From contig NC_092578.1 in the NCBI RefSeq assembly GCF_037975245.1, positions 10,584,359 to 10,648,358 of the forward strand: a stretch of DNA of 64,000 bases, in the 5' to 3' direction. This document shows, one piece after another, positions 28,622 through 64,000 of this stretch. Numbering within the stretch: position 1 is the stretch's first letter; every line of letters begins with the position of its first letter. The translations under genes and the position numbers were made by a program. The stretch comes from Apostichopus japonicus (Eukaryota > Echinodermata > Holothuroidea > Aspidochirotida > Stichopodidae). The notes beneath the pieces are model-generated. The model was not told where the DNA came from and ran no database searches. It was given only the letters and a program-made list of their open reading frames with translations.

Positions 28622-29780
28622 ACAAATTCAAATTCAAATAAACTTTATTAAGCACCAAAAATGGGCAATTAAATGCTCGCAATAAGACAATACAATGATA
28701 AGATGGAATAAGAATAATACAAATAGTATACATGAAAATACACTAAAAGGATACCAAACTATGAATTGCACATATTAATTTAATAGGATAATAAGAATTC
28801 AAACTATTAAGAAAAATAAGGATTGCAACTGACTGAAGGAATAAGAATCAAAACTCTCGAAAATGGTCAAACTATAAGAATCGAAACTAATAGGAATTTA
28901 AACCTAAAACTAAAAAATTGAAAAACCTATACGACAGTCTAACGGATCAAAAACGAAAGGATCAAAATTCAATTTTGAAAACAATTAAACTTTAAAAGGT
29001 ACCTATAAAGCAATATACTGCTCCTAAACAGATAAAAAAAAAATAATGATAATATGCATAAGAGAAAAGAGACAATAGTCTAGTACCCTACAAAGGTGAC
29101 CCTAAAAACATTGCACAAAGACTAGTGTATTAAGAATGAAATAATCAAACATAGGAATCGAATTAAGAATATTGCACAATGAACCTAACGACACGCTGCC
29201 TATCTGGTGAAAGTATTATTAAAATGTGTGACAGCCATCGGAACGAAGGAATGTTTGTAGCGGTTTGTCCCAGCAGCTGGGGGTCTCATCCTACCACTCC
29301 GCCCAGTGAATCGTCCAACGAGATCACTGTGTAACGGGTGATCGGTGTCATCAAGCACGGTGCGGAGCTTACGTTGAAGGCAGGAATTATAGAAAGAATC
29401 GAGCGGCTGCTGATGATTCCCAATCAGACGTTCAGATTTCCTTATTATGCTATTGATTCTCTTCTTGTCCTGTTCAGTAATGCTACCACCCCAACACACA
29501 ATACAATAAGTGAAAATGCTGGTAATGACGGAACGGTAGAATAATGACAGAAGGGTATGTTCAACATGAAATAATTTCAATTTCCTCAAACAGTATAGAC
29601 GAGAATTTAACTTTGACATAATTAGATCTATATTATCTGACCAGCTAAGTTTGTCATTAACAACAACCCCTAAGTATTTATAAGTATGAACCCGTTCAAC
29701 TGGAGAGTCAGAAATAGTTTTGTGCATTTCTTTATCGTTAATCAACGTTAAAGATAGATTACCACTTACACGCATTCTTA
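28622..29780 (-). pseudogene. LINE 3' end (reverse transcriptase thumb and 3' UTR), 5'-truncated
   Basis: The open frame 29200-29775 encodes the C-terminal part of a non-LTR reverse transcriptase. It carries HTYKYLGVVVNDKLSWSDNI, a SIFTYCIVCWGG segment and the usual terminal PPAAGTNRYKHSF, ending at a stop. Below it is about 570 bp of A-rich 3' UTR finishing in TTTGAATTTGAATTTG on the minus strand, a microsatellite tail common in CR1/L2/Rex1-type LINEs. The catalytic palm is absent, so the copy was 5'-truncated at about 29780. The frame is intact over 191 codons, which suggests a younger insertion than the other LINE relics here. It is not the same family as 61341-62930. Confidence 0.75.
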
Positions 29781-31124: not shown

Positions 31125-32660
31125 TTACTTAAAAACGTTGTTTCTATTTTTTGAACCTAAAAGGAACTTTAACAGTCTAGACTGTTCTGGTACTTTCGAA
31201 CATTCTAAGAGCACCATAGGCTTAAATACCTGTCTAAACTGAGGATGTTTCCAAGCGTACAATGCTGGATTTATGGCATTACTTAATGCGTAGAAAACAG
31301 CAACATAAGGAAAGACTTGTTCAAACACCTCTGCTATTAAGCAGACCATATACGGAGTGATGCATATTAGGTACGCAGCAACAACAATAAACATGTTTAT
31401 TGTGATTTTAACTTGACGTGCATTAAGAGTCTCGCGTAAATTTTGACTGTGTGACATGGTAGATATTTTAGGAGACTTCTTCCTCATTTTCACTTTATCT
31501 CTGTAAGTATCATTTGTGTTGTATCCGTCATTATTATCATCATCCTCATAAGTGGAGACCGCTGATTTGAGATCGTCTTTGCTATTTTCTGACCATGAAA
31601 TATTTGTTTTAGCTGGTGAACCCTGTGAATTTCTATGGTAAAAAGTGACGTCACCCCTGTCACCCATGGAGGTTGCATTCATAGGCAATGCCATTCTTAA
31701 TTTATGTCTTTCATCGTCGACATGTCCAGTAAAATGAGGTTCACTTATCGTGTTGACCTGAACATGGTCACCACTTCTTGAAGTAGTACCTCTTTCTGTT
31801 TCTATGTCGACATGATCCACAGAGGTTCCCTTATCACACAATTCAATTACATCGGAGGTTGACAATCCTTGAATTGTACTTTTACTTCTTTTGTTTACAC
31901 CTGTAACTTTAGGAGAACTTGGTGAATGTCTCTTTTCAATACTTGACTGTAACATACTTATTAATTTTTTGTTATGACGATAGATATAGATAAGTATGGC
32001 GGTGTAACATATAAGTACTAAAATTAAAATAAACAAATCTATGGTCGTGGCTCTAACGATGCTAACTTTGGCCACATTAGCGTCGAGGATATCTGGCAAG
32101 CACACTCGGTATTTTGTGCTGTAGCCAAATTGAACCTGAGTTACCACTGCCCAAATAACTGAAAGGCTCGCATACAACCAAGCTGTACATAGCATTATCA
32201 GAACACGGAATTTTGTAAACATTCGACTATATTTGTATTGCGGTCTCGTAATCCTGTAAAACCTGTCGAATGCAATTAGAGCATGGGCTACATTGGTCCC
32301 AGAAAAGCTAATGTAGCTCATAATACCTGAATAACTGCACAGTTGCGTGTTGATAACACTACTCTCGGTGTTAGCAATCATGTTTACAATGGTAAATGGC
32401 AGAGTCGTACACGCTAACCCAGCTGCAATCGTCAAATTTAGAACAAACACGTTGGCAACGGTCTGAAGTTTCTTGGACAGCATCACAGCAACAACCGTTA
32501 GTATATTTCCTATGAGTCCGAATACAGTGATGATCAAAAGTAACGAAGCTACAATAATTCGTTGGTTAATGTCATCGAATATCCACTCTTCGTCAGCTTC
32601 CATTGAATCATTGTTTGATAAGCTCCGGCTAAAGCCTTGGCTTATCCCTTTGCCATGCAT
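31125..32660 (-). CDS. Rhodopsin-class (class A) G-protein-coupled receptor, orphan
   Basis: A 511-residue single-exon receptor. Seven hydrophobic segments are visible: TM1 with GNILTVVAV (about 50-58), TM2 LNLTIAAGLACTTLPF (about 74-89), TM3 ending in DRF (132-134, for the usual DRY), TM4, TM5, then an unusually long third intracellular loop of about 185 charged residues, TM6 with CITPYMV (for CWxP), and TM7 with NPALY (the NPxxY motif) followed by helix 8. The ECL1 cysteine (about 108) and a cysteine in ECL2 (RVCLPD) can form the usual disulfide. By overall motifs it is nearest to melatonin-receptor-like, moody/Tre1-like or other orphan class A receptors; I cannot assign a ligand. The start was chosen at the ATG at 32660. 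The frame is open to 32738 but without an ATG, and a CCAG acceptor just upstream leaves a 5' exon possible. The sodium-site aspartate of TM2 appears replaced by glycine. Confidence 0.88.
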   Translation of the reverse strand: MHGKGISQGFSRSLSNNDSMEADEEWIFDDINQRIIVASLLLIITVFGLIGNILTVVAVMLSKKLQTVANVFVLNLTIAAGLACTTLPFTIVNMIANTESSVINTQLCSYSGIMSYISFSGTNVAHALIAFDRFYRITRPQYKYSRMFTKFRVLIMLCTAWLYASLSVIWAVVTQVQFGYSTKYRVCLPDILDANVAKVSIVRATTIDLFILILVLICYTAILIYIYRHNKKLISMLQSSIEKRHSPSSPKVTGVNKRSKSTIQGLSTSDVIELCDKGTSVDHVDIETERGTTSRSGDHVQVNTISEPHFTGHVDDERHKLRMALPMNATSMGDRGDVTFYHRNSQGSPAKTNISWSENSKDDLKSAVSTYEDDDNNDGYNTNDTYRDKVKMRKKSPKISTMSHSQNLRETLNARQVKITINMFIVVAAYLICITPYMVCLIAEVFEQVFPYVAVFYALSNAINPALYAWKHPQFRQVFKPMVLLECSKVPEQSRLLKFLLGSKNRNNVFK

Positions 32661-33768
32661 GTCGGCGTTACTACCTGCTTCCTGCTGCTTTGCACAACAA
32701 TTACTCACAGAAAGCACTGACAAAGATTGGTTGTTCACTGGAAAATGTTATCCATATTTTAATTTGTAAGGATTAACATCAGTATGTAAAAGTCAGCTTT
32801 GGGACAACTTGATGGTAATTTACAAACGTGACGTTGATTCAGCGCCTGTCGCGTAGATATCCATCCAAGTAATAAAGGTACATGTGTCAACATTGATGTA
32901 ACGAGTTAAGTTCGTTAACTATTAAGCTACATCCATCGGTGTAATACAGGCCTGTATCTGTCTAGCTGTATCAATTTAAGTTGGCTAAATGTTATATAGT
33001 TAATGTTCAATATTCTGTTGTGTAAGATACCGGACAGAAACTGTAGGTTCTGTTCGAAACACTTCTTCAGTTTCTTCTTTGTTCACACGTCAATCACTCT
33101 TTGTTCTGACTAATAAGCTTACGGTATCTAAATTCGACGTAAGGTTATATTGCTTATGCACGATTCTAAAGTACTCATTATTTGTCCATTTCAATGAAAG
33201 ATTATGAAACAGAAGTTTTTTTATAAGGACTATCGGATCAAAGATTTGGTCAAAGCCTCTGACTAGTTAATTTGAAGAACCATCAGTCACGAAGTGAAAC
33301 GAACAGGCTACCAAACTGGACGGTAAATGAACTGATATAACAGGACATACGCTTCTGAGGTAAGGTTAAAGAGAAAAAACAATCAACAAACCCTTCCACT
33401 CACAGTTGTCTTCGTCGATCTGCAACTTGAGACGTCAAGGAAACTACGTTTTCTCCTCTGAATGTGTACTCAACATATATAGGTACGTATATATGTATTG
33501 TGCACACAGTACAAACAACACAGTAAAAGCTAATCAATATGATGCTGACGAAAACTTATAGACAATGATAGGTAAAGATTATCATGTACCTCTGTTTGCA
33601 GTAGCATTACCCTGATCGTGGAATACTCCCCAGTTGACAATATTATGTTCTTAACTACCGAGTGCGAGTGCATGCCATCTCGTTTTATGATTGGTAAAGC
33701 TGCCAATCTTCACTAGTAATCAACTGTTGTTCAATGGTTGTAGCCTACCTGCAATAGTTCATCATTAC
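32661..33768. other. 5' flank of the GPCR; no other gene seen
   Basis: AT-rich sequence upstream of the minus-strand receptor. It probably holds its promoter or 5' exons, but no element could be defined. Confidence 0.4.
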
Positions 33769-48259: not shown

Positions 48260-49064
48260 GGGTTCTGAGCTATGATACGCCACAGAGTAAAATATTAGTA
48301 ATTCCTCTTTCTGACATGTGTTTCCGTGTGCGTATTCAAAATCTCTCGCAGAGGCCAGGAACTATCTGAAAATACTGCATCCCTCTCCTCCCAAGCCAAT
48401 AACAGTGTTCGACTTCCTATACGCGTCTGAGTATTCAGCTGTAATTATCAAATAAATTGTCACTTTATAGGTTTAATTTTAAAACGTTGCTCAGCAAGTC
48501 ACTGCTGTCGGTCTGAAAGATTGGTCGGTCTCAGAATCGATCTACTATACACCCTCCGAAGAGATAATTGGCCAAATCGGATAGCAATCGACCAAATAAC
48601 AAAATACGGTACGGTACTGAGAGAAAGTACCACAGACAGCGGTGTGACAAGAACCGAAGGCAAAAACATCTACTGAAGTCAGCCCAAGTCAAAAGAATAC
48701 ATGTTATCATCAGAAAAAGCCCGAGAGTGCCATATTAGGTCGTCTAGTGGAGCCAAAAAAAAAAAAAAAAACCCATTCGAAACCACGGATTGGATGAATA
48801 TTGACTTTTCTTTGGGTATCTATTACATTGCTGCACTATTCCTTGCTACGCGACCCCCATGCAGTCACAGATAAGTGGATCAATATTGATTAATTCTTGT
48901 ATTGTAAACTGTTTTATTGTTTGGACAGTTAGCCATTTATTGAAGAAAAAGTTTGCTTGTAAGTCCTAGCAATGATTGGTTTTTGTCAATTGAATGAAGA
49001 CCCAATCTACATTAGGCAAAAATGCCCTATTTTGTTCTTTCATTTAGTTCGCGGAAAATTCGAG
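48260..49064. other. No gene seen; likely 5' flank of the LGR-like gene
   Basis: Contains an A-run (about 48754-48772). The promoter of the gene starting at 49065 should lie here or in the last few hundred bases, but no motif was defined. Confidence 0.4.
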
Positions 49065-49294
49065 ATGGTTCGTTTTAAGATGTTTACACTGACGGTGGCT
49101 CTAGTGTTGCACGTTATCTCTCCCAGCGGAGCGTTTCCTTTCCCATCCATACCGAAGTTGTCTTCATGGTTCTTTAGAACCGACGGACCTCTCGGGCCTT
49201 GTCCTTCCTCCTGCCACTGTAATGGTGAGACAGCCAGTTGCTTCAAACCTCTGCCTGAAACCGAAGTTCCTTTACCTTCGACCATCGAATCACT
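49065..49294 (+). CDS. Exon 1 of an LRR receptor gene: signal peptide and LRRNT (LGR/glycoprotein-hormone-receptor-like)
   Basis: The exon encodes MVRFKMFTLTVALVLHVISP, a clear signal peptide, then a cysteine cap CPSSCHCNGETASC (C-x3-C-x-C-x6-C, the LRRNT pattern) and a TEVPLPSTIESL end that begins the first repeat. It stops at CACT|GTGAGT in phase 2. An upstream in-frame ATG at 48972 exists, but the signal peptide fits the one at 49065. Exons 2 and 3 (51506-51577, 52359-52427) continue in the same phase. In vertebrate FSH/LH/TSH receptors exon 1 likewise holds the signal peptide and cysteine cap, and each following ~70-bp exon encodes one repeat. The rest of the gene (more repeats, hinge, seven-helix domain) is not seen and may lie beyond the window. 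Another LRR receptor type (RXFP/LGR4-6 or a non-GPCR) is possible. Confidence 0.72.
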
Positions 49295-50124
49295 GTGAGT
49301 ATGGCTATGAAGGTTCAAGATGATCGAAAACATTGTTTTGTTCTACAATCAGTATGACTGAGAGAGTATACTAGCGAGAACTTATATACATTGTTTACAT
49401 TATGACATGGTGAACATTTATATATATATCAATAAAGAGATTTATAAAATGAAATAGTTTCGTGATTTTAAAGCATCAGTTCAAATAAATCGCACTATCA
49501 AGATTATGAAAACAAAAGCATATTAGCTCTGTTGGGGAAACTAAATATTTCAACTTTTGTAAATACAAAAAAAACGAGGTGGGTTTATAGCGATCCAATT
49601 GTCAAAGACGCAAAGTGGATTGAGAGCGACGAATATAGCGGAGATACTTTCAAGGGCGACCTTCTTTGTTTTTGGTTCCTTGCTGGAAGCAAATGAACCG
49701 ATGCAGTCACGTTAGGGTGGGTGTGTGCGTCGGTGTGTACGTCTGTGGCAATTGTTTGGGTCCGCGATAACTCAACAACGGAGTGATGGGTATTTATCAT
49801 ACTTGCTATGTATTATAGATGGGAAGGTGTGCCATATCGCTTGGATAATGTGATGTTCCTCTTTTCAAAGACAACAAAATATATCCAAAAAATCGTCTTA
49901 TGCCACAAACCTGTGTTCAGTGCCCTTAAAACACAAATGAATAACATAACAGAAAATTTGGTAGTCACTCCCTGTACATCATAAATGTGCTTAGGTTTGT
50001 TCATAAATGAAACTATAGTTAAGAAAAGACTTGAATGGTCAATCTTTGATAGATTTTGAGTTGCAGCTATTTTCATGATTTCTGGTGCCTATATTAGTAT
50101 GATTAGGAGAATGTTGTTCCTAGG

Positions 50125-50690
50125 TGTCCCTAGACGTCGGATTGTAGCTTAACTTGGTATACAGTTGTTGGTTTACAGTTGGTACATGCAAATATTTTGG
50201 GACCATCTGAGCCCAAACAATTCCGGGCCCATTTTTGCGCCGGGTGGACCCAAATTTTATTTCCTCATCATATGCATTTTGGGACACATTCTTTAGGCCC
50301 GAACTTGTGGGGCCCAATATGTTTGGGACCATTTGGGTCCATATCTTGTTACATTGCAATAACTCTGCAATATTAAGTCGGATTGTAGCCAAACTTGGCA
50401 TCAAGTTGTTGATTAGGAGCTGGTACATATAGACCATCTCGGCCCCCAAACATTGGGCCCATTTTTTCGGCCAGGTGGGCCCAACTTTTATTTCCACCTC
50501 AAATATATTTGGGACACATTCTTTGAGCCCGAACTTGTGAGGCCCTTGTTAGACGCAAAACTTTATCGGGCCCAATGTCTTTGAGAGGGACCAACATTTA
50601 AATTACAATCACTCCACAACCTTAAATCAGATTATGTCCAAACTTGGAATACAGTTGTTGGTTAATAGCTGGTACATATACTGGTGGGCA
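50125..50690. repeat. Tandem repeat, ~247-bp unit, 2.3 copies, in intron 1 of the LGR-like gene
   Basis: GTCGGATTGTAGC..AACTTGG starts units at about 50136, 50382 and (as ATCAGATTATGTCCAAACTTGG) 50625, each followed by GTTGTTG and GGTACAT. The units are rich in GGGCCC-type motifs and contain TTTGGGACACATTCTTT. Non-coding. Confidence 0.85.
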
Positions 50691-51505
50691 TAAATATTAT
50701 GCTATTGGGTGATGACATACAAGACTTTAATATTCCACCGACTACGGAACCGTAGTGCCCGTTGGGCTCTTGTTACATATTAAGGGCCAGATAGATAAAT
50801 TTGGTAATATTATAGCAGCTTTGATAACTATCCAACGACGTTAAATATGATCTCGTTGTTGGTATAGCAGCACAAAAAAGAAATGGTTTGATTATTTGAA
50901 GCTGTTGGATTCGTTTTCGATTCATGCATCACGTACGCATCGGAACTACTCTCGATGTCGTTAGCGCATGCGCAGAGACTACCGATTTCGTTTGTATGTT
51001 GGAAGATTGTCAATTTTATTATAATTTTTGAGCTGTTCCCTTACTTTTTGCAACACAAAAGTAGAAACAAGGATAAACATCACCACTTAGCCTATAGACT
51101 TGCATCATATCTTCGTGGTATATGTATGTACCTGCAGTCGGTTTAAATGTTTCATAAAAATCACAACTCAATAGTTTACCCTAGTATTTTCCATGTCATG
51201 ATAATATTTACGAATCCCTGTGTACTCTGAGTCAGGTAAACATTGCTTAACACTTCATATGTACACTACGGGCAACTCTGCCAGCTCCAGGGAGTATCCT
51301 TTACAATTTTGCCACAGCATGCTATCAAAGAACCTTAAATTACACATGTGGGAAAAAAACGAAACTTGGAGAAACGCAAATGCCGTAGGAAACATCGAAT
51401 ATCGAATAATTGTTTTTACTTATTGGTCGATTCTGACTTATTCGTTAATTATGTTATTTAGTGTTTTGAGCACACTTTCTAATTTACCAACCAATTTCAT
51501 TTCAG

Positions 51506-51577
51506 AGTGCTGATTGGCCTGACTCCTCAAGATATATCGCGTTACATTGCCAGTACACCGAATTTGAAAAACATTGT
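51506..51577 (+). CDS. Exon 2 of the LGR-like gene (one LRR, 72 bp)
   Basis: Acceptor CATTTCAG| and donor |GTAAGT frame exactly 72 bp. Joined in phase 2 to exon 1 it reads as one leucine-rich repeat (VLIGLTPQDISRYIA then STPNLKNI). The length and phase match the one-repeat-per-exon layout of LGR genes. It is too short to appear as an open frame with its own start. Confidence 0.7.
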
Positions 51578-52358
51578 GTAAGTTTTCCATTGGCTCGTTA
51601 ATGAAAAAAAATTGGAAGACGTTTATTATTAACATTGCGTTTACAATATATAGAATTTTGCCTTTAGTAGATGGAGAGTTGGGTTATATGTTTCAGAAAA
51701 TACGGAAAGTTACAGAAAATTCTTAGCCTTCCAATTATGACTTTTCACAACCCCTGTGTTTCTTATACAACAGAATGCCACGGTAACGGGCATTTTACGG
51801 TAAATTTGAGGTTGCTTGATTGATTGCTTATTATTTCAATTTGACCACCATGACCTCTTAGAATATGAGATAGAAGTAGAAATTTAGCTCCAACACATCT
51901 GCCAGCTTTTGCTCCGGAAAAGTTTTGATTTAATCAGAAATTTGATTTAAATCACCTTCAATCCTCCCGAGTTTTAGAACGTCGGTAGTTTATGTCATCC
52001 TATTCAGCATCCAAGCATCTAAAAGAATGATGATGACTGGGAACTTGATAAAAAAGTTACTTCAGAACTATTTCTTGACTATGTGCTATACAACATAGCA
52101 TTCAATCAATTTTGGTCATAACAGACCAGAATTGCCATTGTTCTACTGTCTATGCACGTTAGTATTTTCATCCTTGTCTCTTTTCCGCTAAATAAATAAT
52201 ATGACATCATCTTGGGACAACATACATTGTCAAAACGGTGTGACACTGCTGGTTTGGCATATTTAGTGAGTGGTGTTCTGACCTCTATTCTAAGATATAC
52301 TTGTTTTACTTTCCTTCAATTCTTAAGCCTTGATAACCTGTGTTCATTTTTTTTATAG

Positions 52359-52427
52359 GCTCAAGGAATCGAATGATGTCTTTATTGAAGAGACCGAATT
52401 GTTTGATAACAGAGGAATGGTTGATCT
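52359..52427 (+). CDS. Exon 3 of the LGR-like gene (one LRR, 69 bp)
   Basis: Acceptor TTTTTTTATAG| and donor |GTATGT frame 69 bp, again phase 2 to phase 2. It encodes LKESNDVFIEETELFDNRG and MVDL. The 'NDV....E..LF' spacing is the one seen in the second repeat of vertebrate gonadotropin receptors. A possible later exon (53951-54007, AG|AAAGAGG to GG|GTATTT, same phase) is too weak to annotate. Confidence 0.65.
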
Positions 52428-61340: not shown

Positions 61341-62930
61341 GATATTTTATTTCTTTTATTTTCGTTTATTTATTTGTTTTTTCACAACATATATACAACA
61401 AAATGTAGCGAACACAGAGAGTTGTGGAATGTGAAAGGAAGTGTATGAAGAAAGTCTTGTGGGCTTGTCTAGTACACTCCCTGTACATAGAGTACACAAA
61501 TAACTTACAAAAAAAGAATTAAGAAAAGAACTAAGAAAAAGAGAAGAAAAGAAGAAAGGAAGAAAAAGAAAAGAAGGAAAGAGGAACCTCAATCTCAGTA
61601 TAAGTTGAAGTAAAATCTCTTTAATTTGTATTTAAACGAATTTCGGGAAGGTTGTGACCTGATATTAAGAAGCAAAGAATTCCATGTGATGCTTGTACGA
61701 TGTCGAAGGCTATACTTCCCTACATTGGTGTGAATGCAATTAGGGCATAAACTTTGTATGTGTCGTGTGTTATAAAATAACACAATTGTGAATGGCATGG
61801 TTGTGAACAAAGAAACTGTCGAATGCAGATAGGACCTGTCCATGAATAGCTCTATAGGCAAATGTGGCTACATATTCATTTATTAAATCAGGGAGCTTGA
61901 GAATGTTAAGATCTTTGAAAAGTTTACTTGTATCATTGTGGTCATTGTAATTGGTAAATGAAACGTGTCTAATTGCTCTTTTTGAATATAAAATAGTTTT
62001 TTAAACATGTGTGACTGGTACCAGACCATACTGGTATGCAGTATGTAAAATGTGGTGCGATTAAAGTAAGATATAACGAATGCAAAATTCTCTTGGGTAA
62101 AACATGCTTAAGTTTTGAGAGAATGCCACAGCCCTTAGCAGTTTTAGTTGCAACATACTGTATGTGATTGTTCCATGTTAAACGGGAGTCAATATAAACA
62201 CCTACAAACTTAGTGCAATCCACTCTTTGCAGACTCTCATTGTTCATTTTAAGATCTAGATTAACTTCATCAGCCTTATACGCTTACTGTTACTGAAAAC
62301 GATATAGTTAGTTTTCCTGACGTTTATTGAAAGTTTGTTAGCAGTAAAACAATCATGAAACTTAACAAGTTCTAAGTTAATAATATGTTCCAAGACATTT
62401 GGGTCATGACCAGTGAAAAAGACACTTGTATCGTCTGCGAGAAGGATCGTAGAGCATAGAGTAGAAACATTACTTATATCATTTATATATAAATAATAAA
62501 AGTAGCCTGGATCTAAGATAGAGCCTTGAGGAACACCGCAGCGAATAGGATGACTTATAGACTTAGTATCGTTAAAACTTGTAAAATGGATTCTATTATT
62601 AATGTAACCTGCATGTTATCCACTCAAGGAATTTTCCTATGATGCCATACTGATTAAGCTTATAAAGCAAAATATTGTGGTCGATGGTGTCAAACGCTTT
62701 CGAAAGATCAAGAAAAATTCCAATTGAAATCTTATTATCTAGGGCATTGGACAACTTGTCAACTGCATCAGCAAGTGCCAGCTCCGTTGAGTGTTTAAGC
62801 CTGAATCCATATTGACCATTATACAATACATTGTGATTGTTAATGAAGTTAAAAAGAGAAACTGGTCTATAGTTATCAAATTGTGTTGGGTCACCTTTCT
62901 TGATATGTGTGCTAGTTTTTTTCTCCCTTT
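61341..62930 (-). pseudogene. LINE relic (CR1/L2/Jockey-group reverse transcriptase), 5'-truncated
   Basis: Minus-strand order: DNYRPVSL (about 62860), then NGQYGFRLKHSTELALADAV and FLDLSKAFDTIDHNILL (62599-62826), GVPQGSIL (about 62530), LLADDTSVFF with the catalytic aspartates (about 62420), and thumb FVGVYIDSRLTWNNHI (61969-62247). A final SITWNSLL segment lies in the 88-codon frame ending at 61595, and a 3' UTR follows with an A-rich tail at about 61341-61380. Frame changes between the blocks inactivate it. Between YRPVSL and the NNHNVLYNGQYGF region a stretch of the fingers domain normally present is missing, an internal deletion. Family shared with 17975-19316 through the 3' UTR. Confidence 0.85.
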
Positions 62931-64000
62931 CTATGCATGGTAGCTAGCCTACCACAACATTTTCCGAGCGTTTCGCTCGCCGCACTAGCGGCACTGTTTT
63001 GTTAACAGTCCTTTCATCGGCCAACTTCGTATGCATGGTAGTTAGCAACTACACAATTTTCAGTACGCTCACTAGCTGCACTTCTGCTGTCAGTGATACA
63101 GTAATACTTTGCACATTTTCCATGCTTCGCGTGCGTTTTCATCCTTGGTTTCACGTTTTAGGCTAAATCAGAAACCTTGAATCCCAACATGACCTATATA
63201 CGACTCCTAATGCAACCATTCTAAACACACGCCGTTTTGCTCGCGCTTTGAGCTCGCAATGGGTATCTTTGGCATGGTCATTAGAATGTTGCCCCCCCCC
63301 CCCCCCGCCCTGACACGAAAACATAGATACTCCACTGTTTGTAAGCTTAATTCAGGTAACTCATTGTTTCAACCAGAAGAACGGCAACTGTTTGAAGAAA
63401 GCTGAGGTGATACAAGTATCGAAGATACATTGATAAACTACATAATAGTGTTTACTAACCGTGTTAGAGCACTTAAAACAGTTACAAAACTGACGGCATA
63501 CAATCCCCGCCAAAAAATACACGGGACAAACCTCGCTCCCCATGCCAATGTTGGAAACTGCGAGACTTCACGACCAACATGTTAAAAGAATTGTCTGGTA
63601 GCCATTAGAAGTTACCTTAAAAAGCGATAACTAATTATCCAAACATGTTTTTCAAAATATGAGAACGCTAGTGTTGCGTTTGATAGAGAAACGATTTTTT
63701 AATCGTGTAGGATGGATATTTGAAGTATACTTTGAACAGTACAGAACGTGACGTCACCTTCGAAAATGCAGATTGCGACATAACCCACGCTCCATACAGT
63801 TCCTACAGTAATCACAACATAAACCGCGTTTGAATACAGATTAATTTCTTCCTTAATTTTCGGTGAAATTTCTTATAAATAATATATGTTTGAAAATCAT
63901 TAAGCCTGCATTATGTTTATCAAGAATGCATGGAATTAAGGATGAAAACACTCGCGAAGCGCGCGAACATCTGTTCTAGCGAGCTACCATGCATGCGAAA
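62931..64000. repeat. ATGCATGGTAGCTAGC repeat heads; otherwise no gene
   Basis: Heads lie at about 62934-62995 and 63028-63090 (ATGCATGGTAG(C/T)TAGC...CGCTCGC..ACTAGC). An inverted one lies at about 63955-63997 (CTAGCGAGCTACCATGCATG). A C-run of about seventeen bases is at 63291-63306. The rest is AT-rich with no supported frame. Confidence 0.55.

What the first reader, a model, noticed from the sequence alone, without database searches (positions are those of the whole stretch)
49065..52427. Three exons of a candidate echinoderm glycoprotein-hormone-receptor-like (LGR) gene
Seen: a signal peptide, an LRRNT cysteine cap and two exons of 72 and 69 bp. All junctions have consensus GT-AG and the same phase (2), and each short exon encodes one leucine-rich repeat. 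Known: FSH/LH/TSH receptors and other LGRs have one LRR per phase-2 exon. Inference: this is the 5' end of an LGR, nearest in repeat spacing to the type A (gonadotropin/TSH receptor) group. The two short exons would be missed by open-frame searches.
Basis: partly seen in the sequence, partly recalled or inferred. Interest (0 to 1): 0.72.

Follow-up and report, generated by a model that had tools for sequence, protein, structure and literature searches.

The report
Start of a secreted leucine-rich-repeat gene
The three small coding pieces look like the real start of a gene for an extracellular leucine-rich-repeat protein, but nothing found here shows that it is a hormone receptor; it more likely runs into a very long repeat-built exon just outside the window.

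Summary
Exons 49065-49294, 51506-51577 and 52359-52427 join without a stop, all in phase 2, into 123 residues: signal-peptide-like start, LRRNT cysteine cap, two LRRs. Among 17 comparable plus-strand candidates in 162.2 kb the two short exons rank 3rd and 1st.

The receptor reading is not supported. None of 25 PDB matches is an LGR; the meaningful ones are weak matches of the cap (best E 0.025) to variable lymphocyte receptors, Slit and AMIGO. No seven-helix candidate was found in 98.2 kb downstream. No cluster of further LRR exons was seen, though five scattered candidates far downstream score like the real exons. One LRR per 72-bp phase-2 exon also occurs in brown-algal ROCO genes (PMC11378527), so it does not mark LGRs.

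Preferred reading, likely but unproven: a 62-bp exon (61892-61953) carries the chain into an 8.2-kb exon starting 3.5 kb past the window. That exon holds 13 near-identical units, no cysteine, acidic coiled-coil-like sequence, a stop and a poly(A) signal: a secreted, LRR-capped, about 324-kDa repeat protein. RNA-seq would settle it.

The parts
49065..49294 (+). Exon 1 (230 bp): signal-peptide-like start, linker, LRRNT cap CPSSCHCNGETASC, first leucine of LRR 1; ends in phase 2
   Evidence: a possible acceptor (AG at 49046-49047) just upstream suggests a non-coding 5' exon (read by eye)
49295..51505 (+). Intron 1, GT-AG, phase 2
51506..51577 (+). Exon 2 (72 bp), one LRR: VLIGLTPQDISRYIASTPNLKNI
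   Evidence: rank 3 of 17 on the plus strand
51578..52358 (+). Intron 2, GT-AG, phase 2
52359..52427 (+). Exon 3 (69 bp), one LRR: LKESNDVFIEETELFDNRGMVD
   Evidence: rank 1 of 17 on the plus strand
61892..61953 (+). Candidate exon 4 (62 bp, phase 2 in, phase 1 out): ELENVKIFEKFTCIIVVIVI, joining in frame to the 8.2-kb exon beyond the window (starts at L002:3484; C18:10651842-10660006)
   Evidence: best of 13 candidates; 4 of 316 controls score as high; suggestive only

Best explanation
These are the first three coding exons of a gene for a secreted or extracellular LRR protein of the general LRRNT-capped kind, not an LGR. Most likely exon 4 (61892-61953) completes the short LRR block and splices in phase 1 into an 8.2-kb exon at C18:10651842-10660006. 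That exon adds 13 near-identical units (12 spacings: eleven of 173 residues, one of 129), acidic and coiled-coil-like, then a unique tail and a stop. The LRR cap would bind a partner while the long cysteine-free rod gives reach, multivalency or self-assembly; RQKR sites before the repeat blocks may be cut in the secretory path. Shown: open frames, phases, repeats, stop, poly(A) signal. Inferred: splicing of exon 4, secretion, cleavage, function.
For: Exons 1-3 verified and well placed against control. The cap aligns without gaps among its cysteines to variable lymphocyte receptors, E 0.025 at best. No 7TM candidate found downstream; no LRR exon candidate between exon 3 and the 8.2-kb exon scores like the verified ones (best 10.8 against 13.1 and 13.4). 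Of 8 signal-peptide-like initial exons that could join the 8.2-kb exon directly in phase, the two with the best donor are exon 1 itself with an inner donor. The exon 4 candidate fits both phases and is the best of 13 for LRR rhythm. Poly(A) signal 142 bases after the stop. Repeat body: 2720 residues, 0 cysteines, net charge -205.
Against: No transcript or homologue joins the LRR exons to the 8.2-kb exon. 4 of 316 control candidates fit the LRR rhythm as well as exon 4, so with 13 candidates a chance fit has a probability of roughly 0.15; the exon was picked by eye before that test, and its hydrophobic stretch alone could explain the fit. Six other initial-exon candidates for the 8.2-kb exon exist, the best with donor score 3.1 against 3.6, and starts made of several exons were not scanned. 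Five candidate LRR exons beyond the 8.2-kb exon score as high as the verified ones. Pfam gave 0 families for the 123-aa chain (E up to 10) and for the 185-aa extended chain (E up to 1). The LRR block would be very short and lacks a C-terminal cysteine cap. pN/pS between repeat copies is 0.70, weak evidence of constraint.
Confidence: 0.52

Rival explanations
1. The exons belong to an extracellular LRR gene whose other exons were missed, have weak splice sites or lie further off; the 8.2-kb repeat exon is a separate gene.
For: Exons 1-3 stand on their own and the join to the repeat exon is only suggestive. Five of 136 scanned candidates beyond the repeat exon score as high as the verified exons.
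Against: No LRR exon candidate of that score before the repeat exon; the five lie scattered from 84 to 156 kb and look like hydrophobic stretches, not LRRs (my reading); the repeat exon has no better single signal-peptide exon than exon 1.
Confidence: 0.25
2. It is a leucine-rich-repeat G-protein-coupled receptor (type A or other LGR), with a seven-helix exon far downstream.
For: Signal-peptide-like start, LRRNT cap and phase-2 one-LRR exons; gonadotropin-receptor introns are said to be all phase 2 in PMC11378527 (passages).
Against: No LGR among 25 PDB matches up to E 10 or among 17 for the extended chain. No 7TM candidate on the plus strand in 98.2 kb downstream (a 7TM domain split over many small exons could be missed). 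The same exon pattern occurs outside LGRs.
Confidence: 0.1
3. A broken or decaying LRR gene fragment with no full product.
For: Only two or three LRRs found, no C-terminal cap and no Pfam match.
Against: Three exons open with matching phases and usable splice sites.
Confidence: 0.08
4. Alternative splicing: an inner donor in exon 1 (exon end 49224, phase 1) joins the signal peptide straight to the 8.2-kb exon, with the LRR exons skipped.
For: The inner donor scores 3.6, best of the 8 initial-exon candidates that fit that exon's phase.
Against: It would cut the LRRNT cap in the middle; no transcript data.
Confidence: 0.05

Closest known systems
Extracellular LRR proteins with an LRRNT cap (variable lymphocyte receptors, Slit, AMIGO)
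   Same: Cap with C-x3-C-x-C-x6-C, aligned without gaps among the cysteines to variable lymphocyte receptors in the three alignments shown, followed by LRRs
   Different: E-values only 0.025 and higher; very short, irregular LRR block; no LRRCT cap seen; probably joined to a long repeat region
Type A LGRs (FSH/LH/TSH receptors)
   Same: One LRR per phase-2 exon; signal-peptide-like start; LRRNT cap
   Different: No LGR match in PDB; no 7TM candidate and no cluster of further phase-2 LRR exons found in 98.2 kb downstream
Brown-algal ROCO genes (PMC11378527, passages read)
   Same: 72-bp phase-2 exons, one LRR each
   Different: ROCO proteins carry ROC-COR GTPase domains; none was seen here. They show that the exon pattern is not diagnostic of LGRs

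Membership tests
LGR (leucine-rich-repeat GPCR) | Signal peptide plus cysteine-rich LRRNT cap | tested here: met
   (hydropathy and pattern only); shared with many LRR families
LGR (leucine-rich-repeat GPCR) | LRRs encoded one per phase-2 exon of about 69-75 bp | tested here: met
   2 of 2 short exons; not specific
LGR (leucine-rich-repeat GPCR) | A series of further LRR exons (about nine or more LRRs, recalled) | tested here: inconclusive
   No cluster found. Of 136 candidates scanned to 161.5 kb, 5 score as high as the verified exons; they lie scattered at 84-156 kb beyond the repeat exon and I rejected them by eye. Before the repeat exon none does
LGR (leucine-rich-repeat GPCR) | Seven-helix rhodopsin-type domain downstream on the same strand | tested here: not met
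   None found in 98.2 kb past the window by frames, motifs and hydropathy. The PF00001 genome search scored only 147 of 891 candidates; none of its 149 matches lies near, and it does not list the window's own receptor, so its silence proves little
LGR (leucine-rich-repeat GPCR) | Sequence match to LGR ectodomains | tested here: not met
   0 LGRs among 25 PDB matches up to E 10, 0 of 17 for the extended chain
Type A LGR | GnHR_trans (PF12369) segment | tested here: inconclusive
   0 matches in the own genome, but the control also rang in 0 of 14 genomes
Extracellular LRRNT-capped LRR protein | LRRNT cap followed by LRR motifs | tested here: met
   by pattern and weak PDB match only; Pfam listed no family at E up to 10

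The most novel reading that the evidence does not exclude
A single gene makes a giant secreted protein: an LRR cap of about four repeats on a 2,720-residue, cysteine-free, strongly acidic body with 13 near-identical coiled-coil-like units, possibly cut at RQKR sites. I found no such mix of an LRR recognition head with a repeat rod in three literature searches (listings only). It could serve adhesion or matrix building.
Probability: 0.48. Interest if true: 0.45.

Novelty: new variant of a known kind. Interest (0 to 1): 0.3.

Why it matters
As an LGR it would have borne on the evolution of reproductive hormone receptors; the evidence does not support that. If the join to the repeat exon is right, gene predictors working on open frames alone would split one giant secreted protein into an orphan repeat frame and a missed LRR head, and its near-identical repeats would be a good place to study how such arrays expand.

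Tried and rejected
Phase-2 LRR exons downstream: scanned at several splice thresholds. The thresholds were too strict and would have missed verified exon 3, so I loosened them. In one search, 5 of 136 candidates reach the score of the verified exons (13.1 or more: at 84081, 106535, 113635, 150639 and 156054 in extended window coordinates). I rejected these by eye as hydrophobic, scattered and beyond the repeat exon; that is a judgement, not a test.

Pfam on the repeat exon gave many families (Nup88, TolA_bind_tri, KIF9 and others, 18 and 9 rows). I treat them as composition matches to coiled coil, since they hit the same repeats and disagree.

Very long open frames around a few seven-helix matches looked at first like receptors with giant exons; the stretches fetched and read showed that the length comes from withheld N runs, so I dropped the idea.

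Literature: searches are search listings. Passages only were seen of PMC11863921, PMC4079206, PMC6564038 and PMC11378527; the passages of the first two held no exon-phase rule for type A LGRs. No whole paper was read.

Not obtained: the paralogue search of the 123-aa chain and of the repeat unit in the own genome; both stayed unanswered. The species was not identified.

Full report
What was checked. The window is C18:10584359-10648358 of an unnamed 671.6-Mb genome in 35 contigs. Exon 1 (49065-49294, 230 bp), exon 2 (51506-51577, 72 bp) and exon 3 (52359-52427, 69 bp) have GT-AG borders, all in phase 2, and join to 123 residues without a stop. The start is hydrophobic as in a signal peptide (hydropathy only). 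Then come CPSSCHCNGETASC, an LRRNT-type cap, and LRR-like pieces IESLVLIGL..., LKNIVLKESND..., MVDL.... Exon 1 DNA matched only itself in the genome (1 match; the tool warns that no match does not prove rarity).

Chance. On the plus strand of 162.2 kb (window plus 98.2 kb downstream, fetched) 17 open phase-2 segments of 63-78 bp have acceptor and donor scores of 0 or more; exon 3 is 1st and exon 2 is 3rd, both within the 3.1 kb after exon 1. On the minus strand there were 30; 14 score 5 or more, 11 of them copies of one piece of the downstream repeat array, and one of the other three scores 10.4, higher than exon 3. The cap pattern occurs twice in six frames, once here. Two good candidates directly behind a cap are what supports the observation; it is confirmed as a probable gene start, without transcript proof.

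Is it an LGR? PDB comparison of the 123 residues gave 25 distinct sequences up to E 10, best 0.025: nine named variable lymphocyte receptors, four (O13, RBC36) that I recall to be derived from them, one each of Slit, AMIGO and a platelet glycoprotein, and nine unrelated viral proteins; no LGR. The extended 185-residue chain gave 17, again no LGR. Pfam listed no family for the 123 residues (E up to 10) or the 185 (E up to 1). Downstream on the plus strand, five frames of 60 residues or more have two or more helix-like stretches: three are low-complexity, one (109161) is rich in Ser, Pro and Leu, and one of 77 residues (113561) is simply hydrophobic; none holds an LGR-type motif (whose only plus-strand hit downstream lies in the repeat exon's tail). 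A receptor domain cut into many small exons could escape these scans. A phmmer search with the window's own rhodopsin-type receptor found only itself above the inclusion threshold. A PF00001 search of the genome listed 149 matches, none near this gene, but scored only 147 of 891 candidates and does not list the window's own receptor, so its silence proves little. PF12369 gave none, with a silent control. One LRR per 72-bp phase-2 exon is also reported for brown-algal ROCO genes, in a paper that states that gonadotropin-receptor introns are all phase 2 as well (PMC11378527, passages); Tetrahymena LRR genes have 90-bp phase-2 exons (PMC6564038, passages). So the exon pattern points to LRR exon duplication in general and not to LGRs in particular.

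What follows exon 3. Between 52.4 and 67.5 kb no candidate LRR exon scores like the verified ones (best 10.8 against 13.1 and 13.4). Beyond the repeat exon, 5 of all 136 candidates in that scan do (84 to 156 kb); I judged them by eye to be hydrophobic stretches. At 67484 in extended window coordinates (L002:3484, C18:10651842) a fair acceptor opens an exon in phase 1 that runs 8.2 kb to a TAA, with a poly(A) signal 142 bases after the stop. It encodes 13 units that start with DKSQESN; of the 12 spacings 11 are 173 residues and one is 129. It has no cysteine in 2720 residues and a net charge of -205; the full five-exon chain would be 2865 residues, 324 kDa, pI 4.7. The best heptad score of one unit is reached by 8 of 500 shuffles. 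RQKR-DLGRFPRDD occurs before the first unit and again at the short spacing; that RxKR suits furin-like cleavage is recalled.

The bridge. Exon 4 candidate 61892-61953 (62 bp) takes phase 2 in and gives phase 1 out, and joins as ...MVDLELENVKIFEKFTCIIVVIVI-D-NPNITADQQQRL..., a continued LRR rhythm. I noticed it by eye first; then, scored for that rhythm, it is the best of 13 candidates, while 4 of 316 controls from elsewhere reach its score, so a chance fit among 13 has a probability of roughly 0.15. That is suggestive, not strong. In favour: of 8 signal-peptide-like initial exons that could join the 8.2-kb exon directly, the two with the best donor (3.6) are exon 1 itself with an inner donor; the next scores 3.1 (starts made of several exons were not scanned). 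Against: the repeat copies show pN/pS 0.70 (pairs under 70% identity were left out, and the divergent tail of the last unit raises pN), no homologue was found, and no transcript was seen.

Verdict. A real 5' end of an extracellular LRR gene (about 0.85 by my judgement); LGR about 0.1; the same gene as the giant repeat exon about 0.5. Function is inferred: a secreted recognition head on a long acidic rod, for adhesion or matrix.

Noticed in passing
window 31125-32738 (-): An uninterrupted class A (rhodopsin-type) receptor of 537 residues (PF00001, E 4.5e-30); best PDB matches GPR84 (E 3.1e-14) and rhodopsin (E 1.5e-13). It is a separate gene, not an LGR.
   Followed up: partly
L002:3484 to L003:1848 (C18:10651842-10660006), 3.5 kb past the window end: An 8.2-kb exon with 13 near-identical units, mostly 519 bp; the tandem repeat finder, whose longest period is 500, did not report it in L003 (L002 was not run).
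   Followed up: yes
window 29200-29775 (-) and 61972-62943 (-): Reverse-transcriptase-like fragments of retroelements, judged by reading the translations.
   Followed up: no
window 50150-50700 (+): Degenerate repeats in intron 1 with recurring GGGCCCATTTTT and TTGGGAC-like phrases, probably a transposon remnant (read by eye).
   Followed up: no
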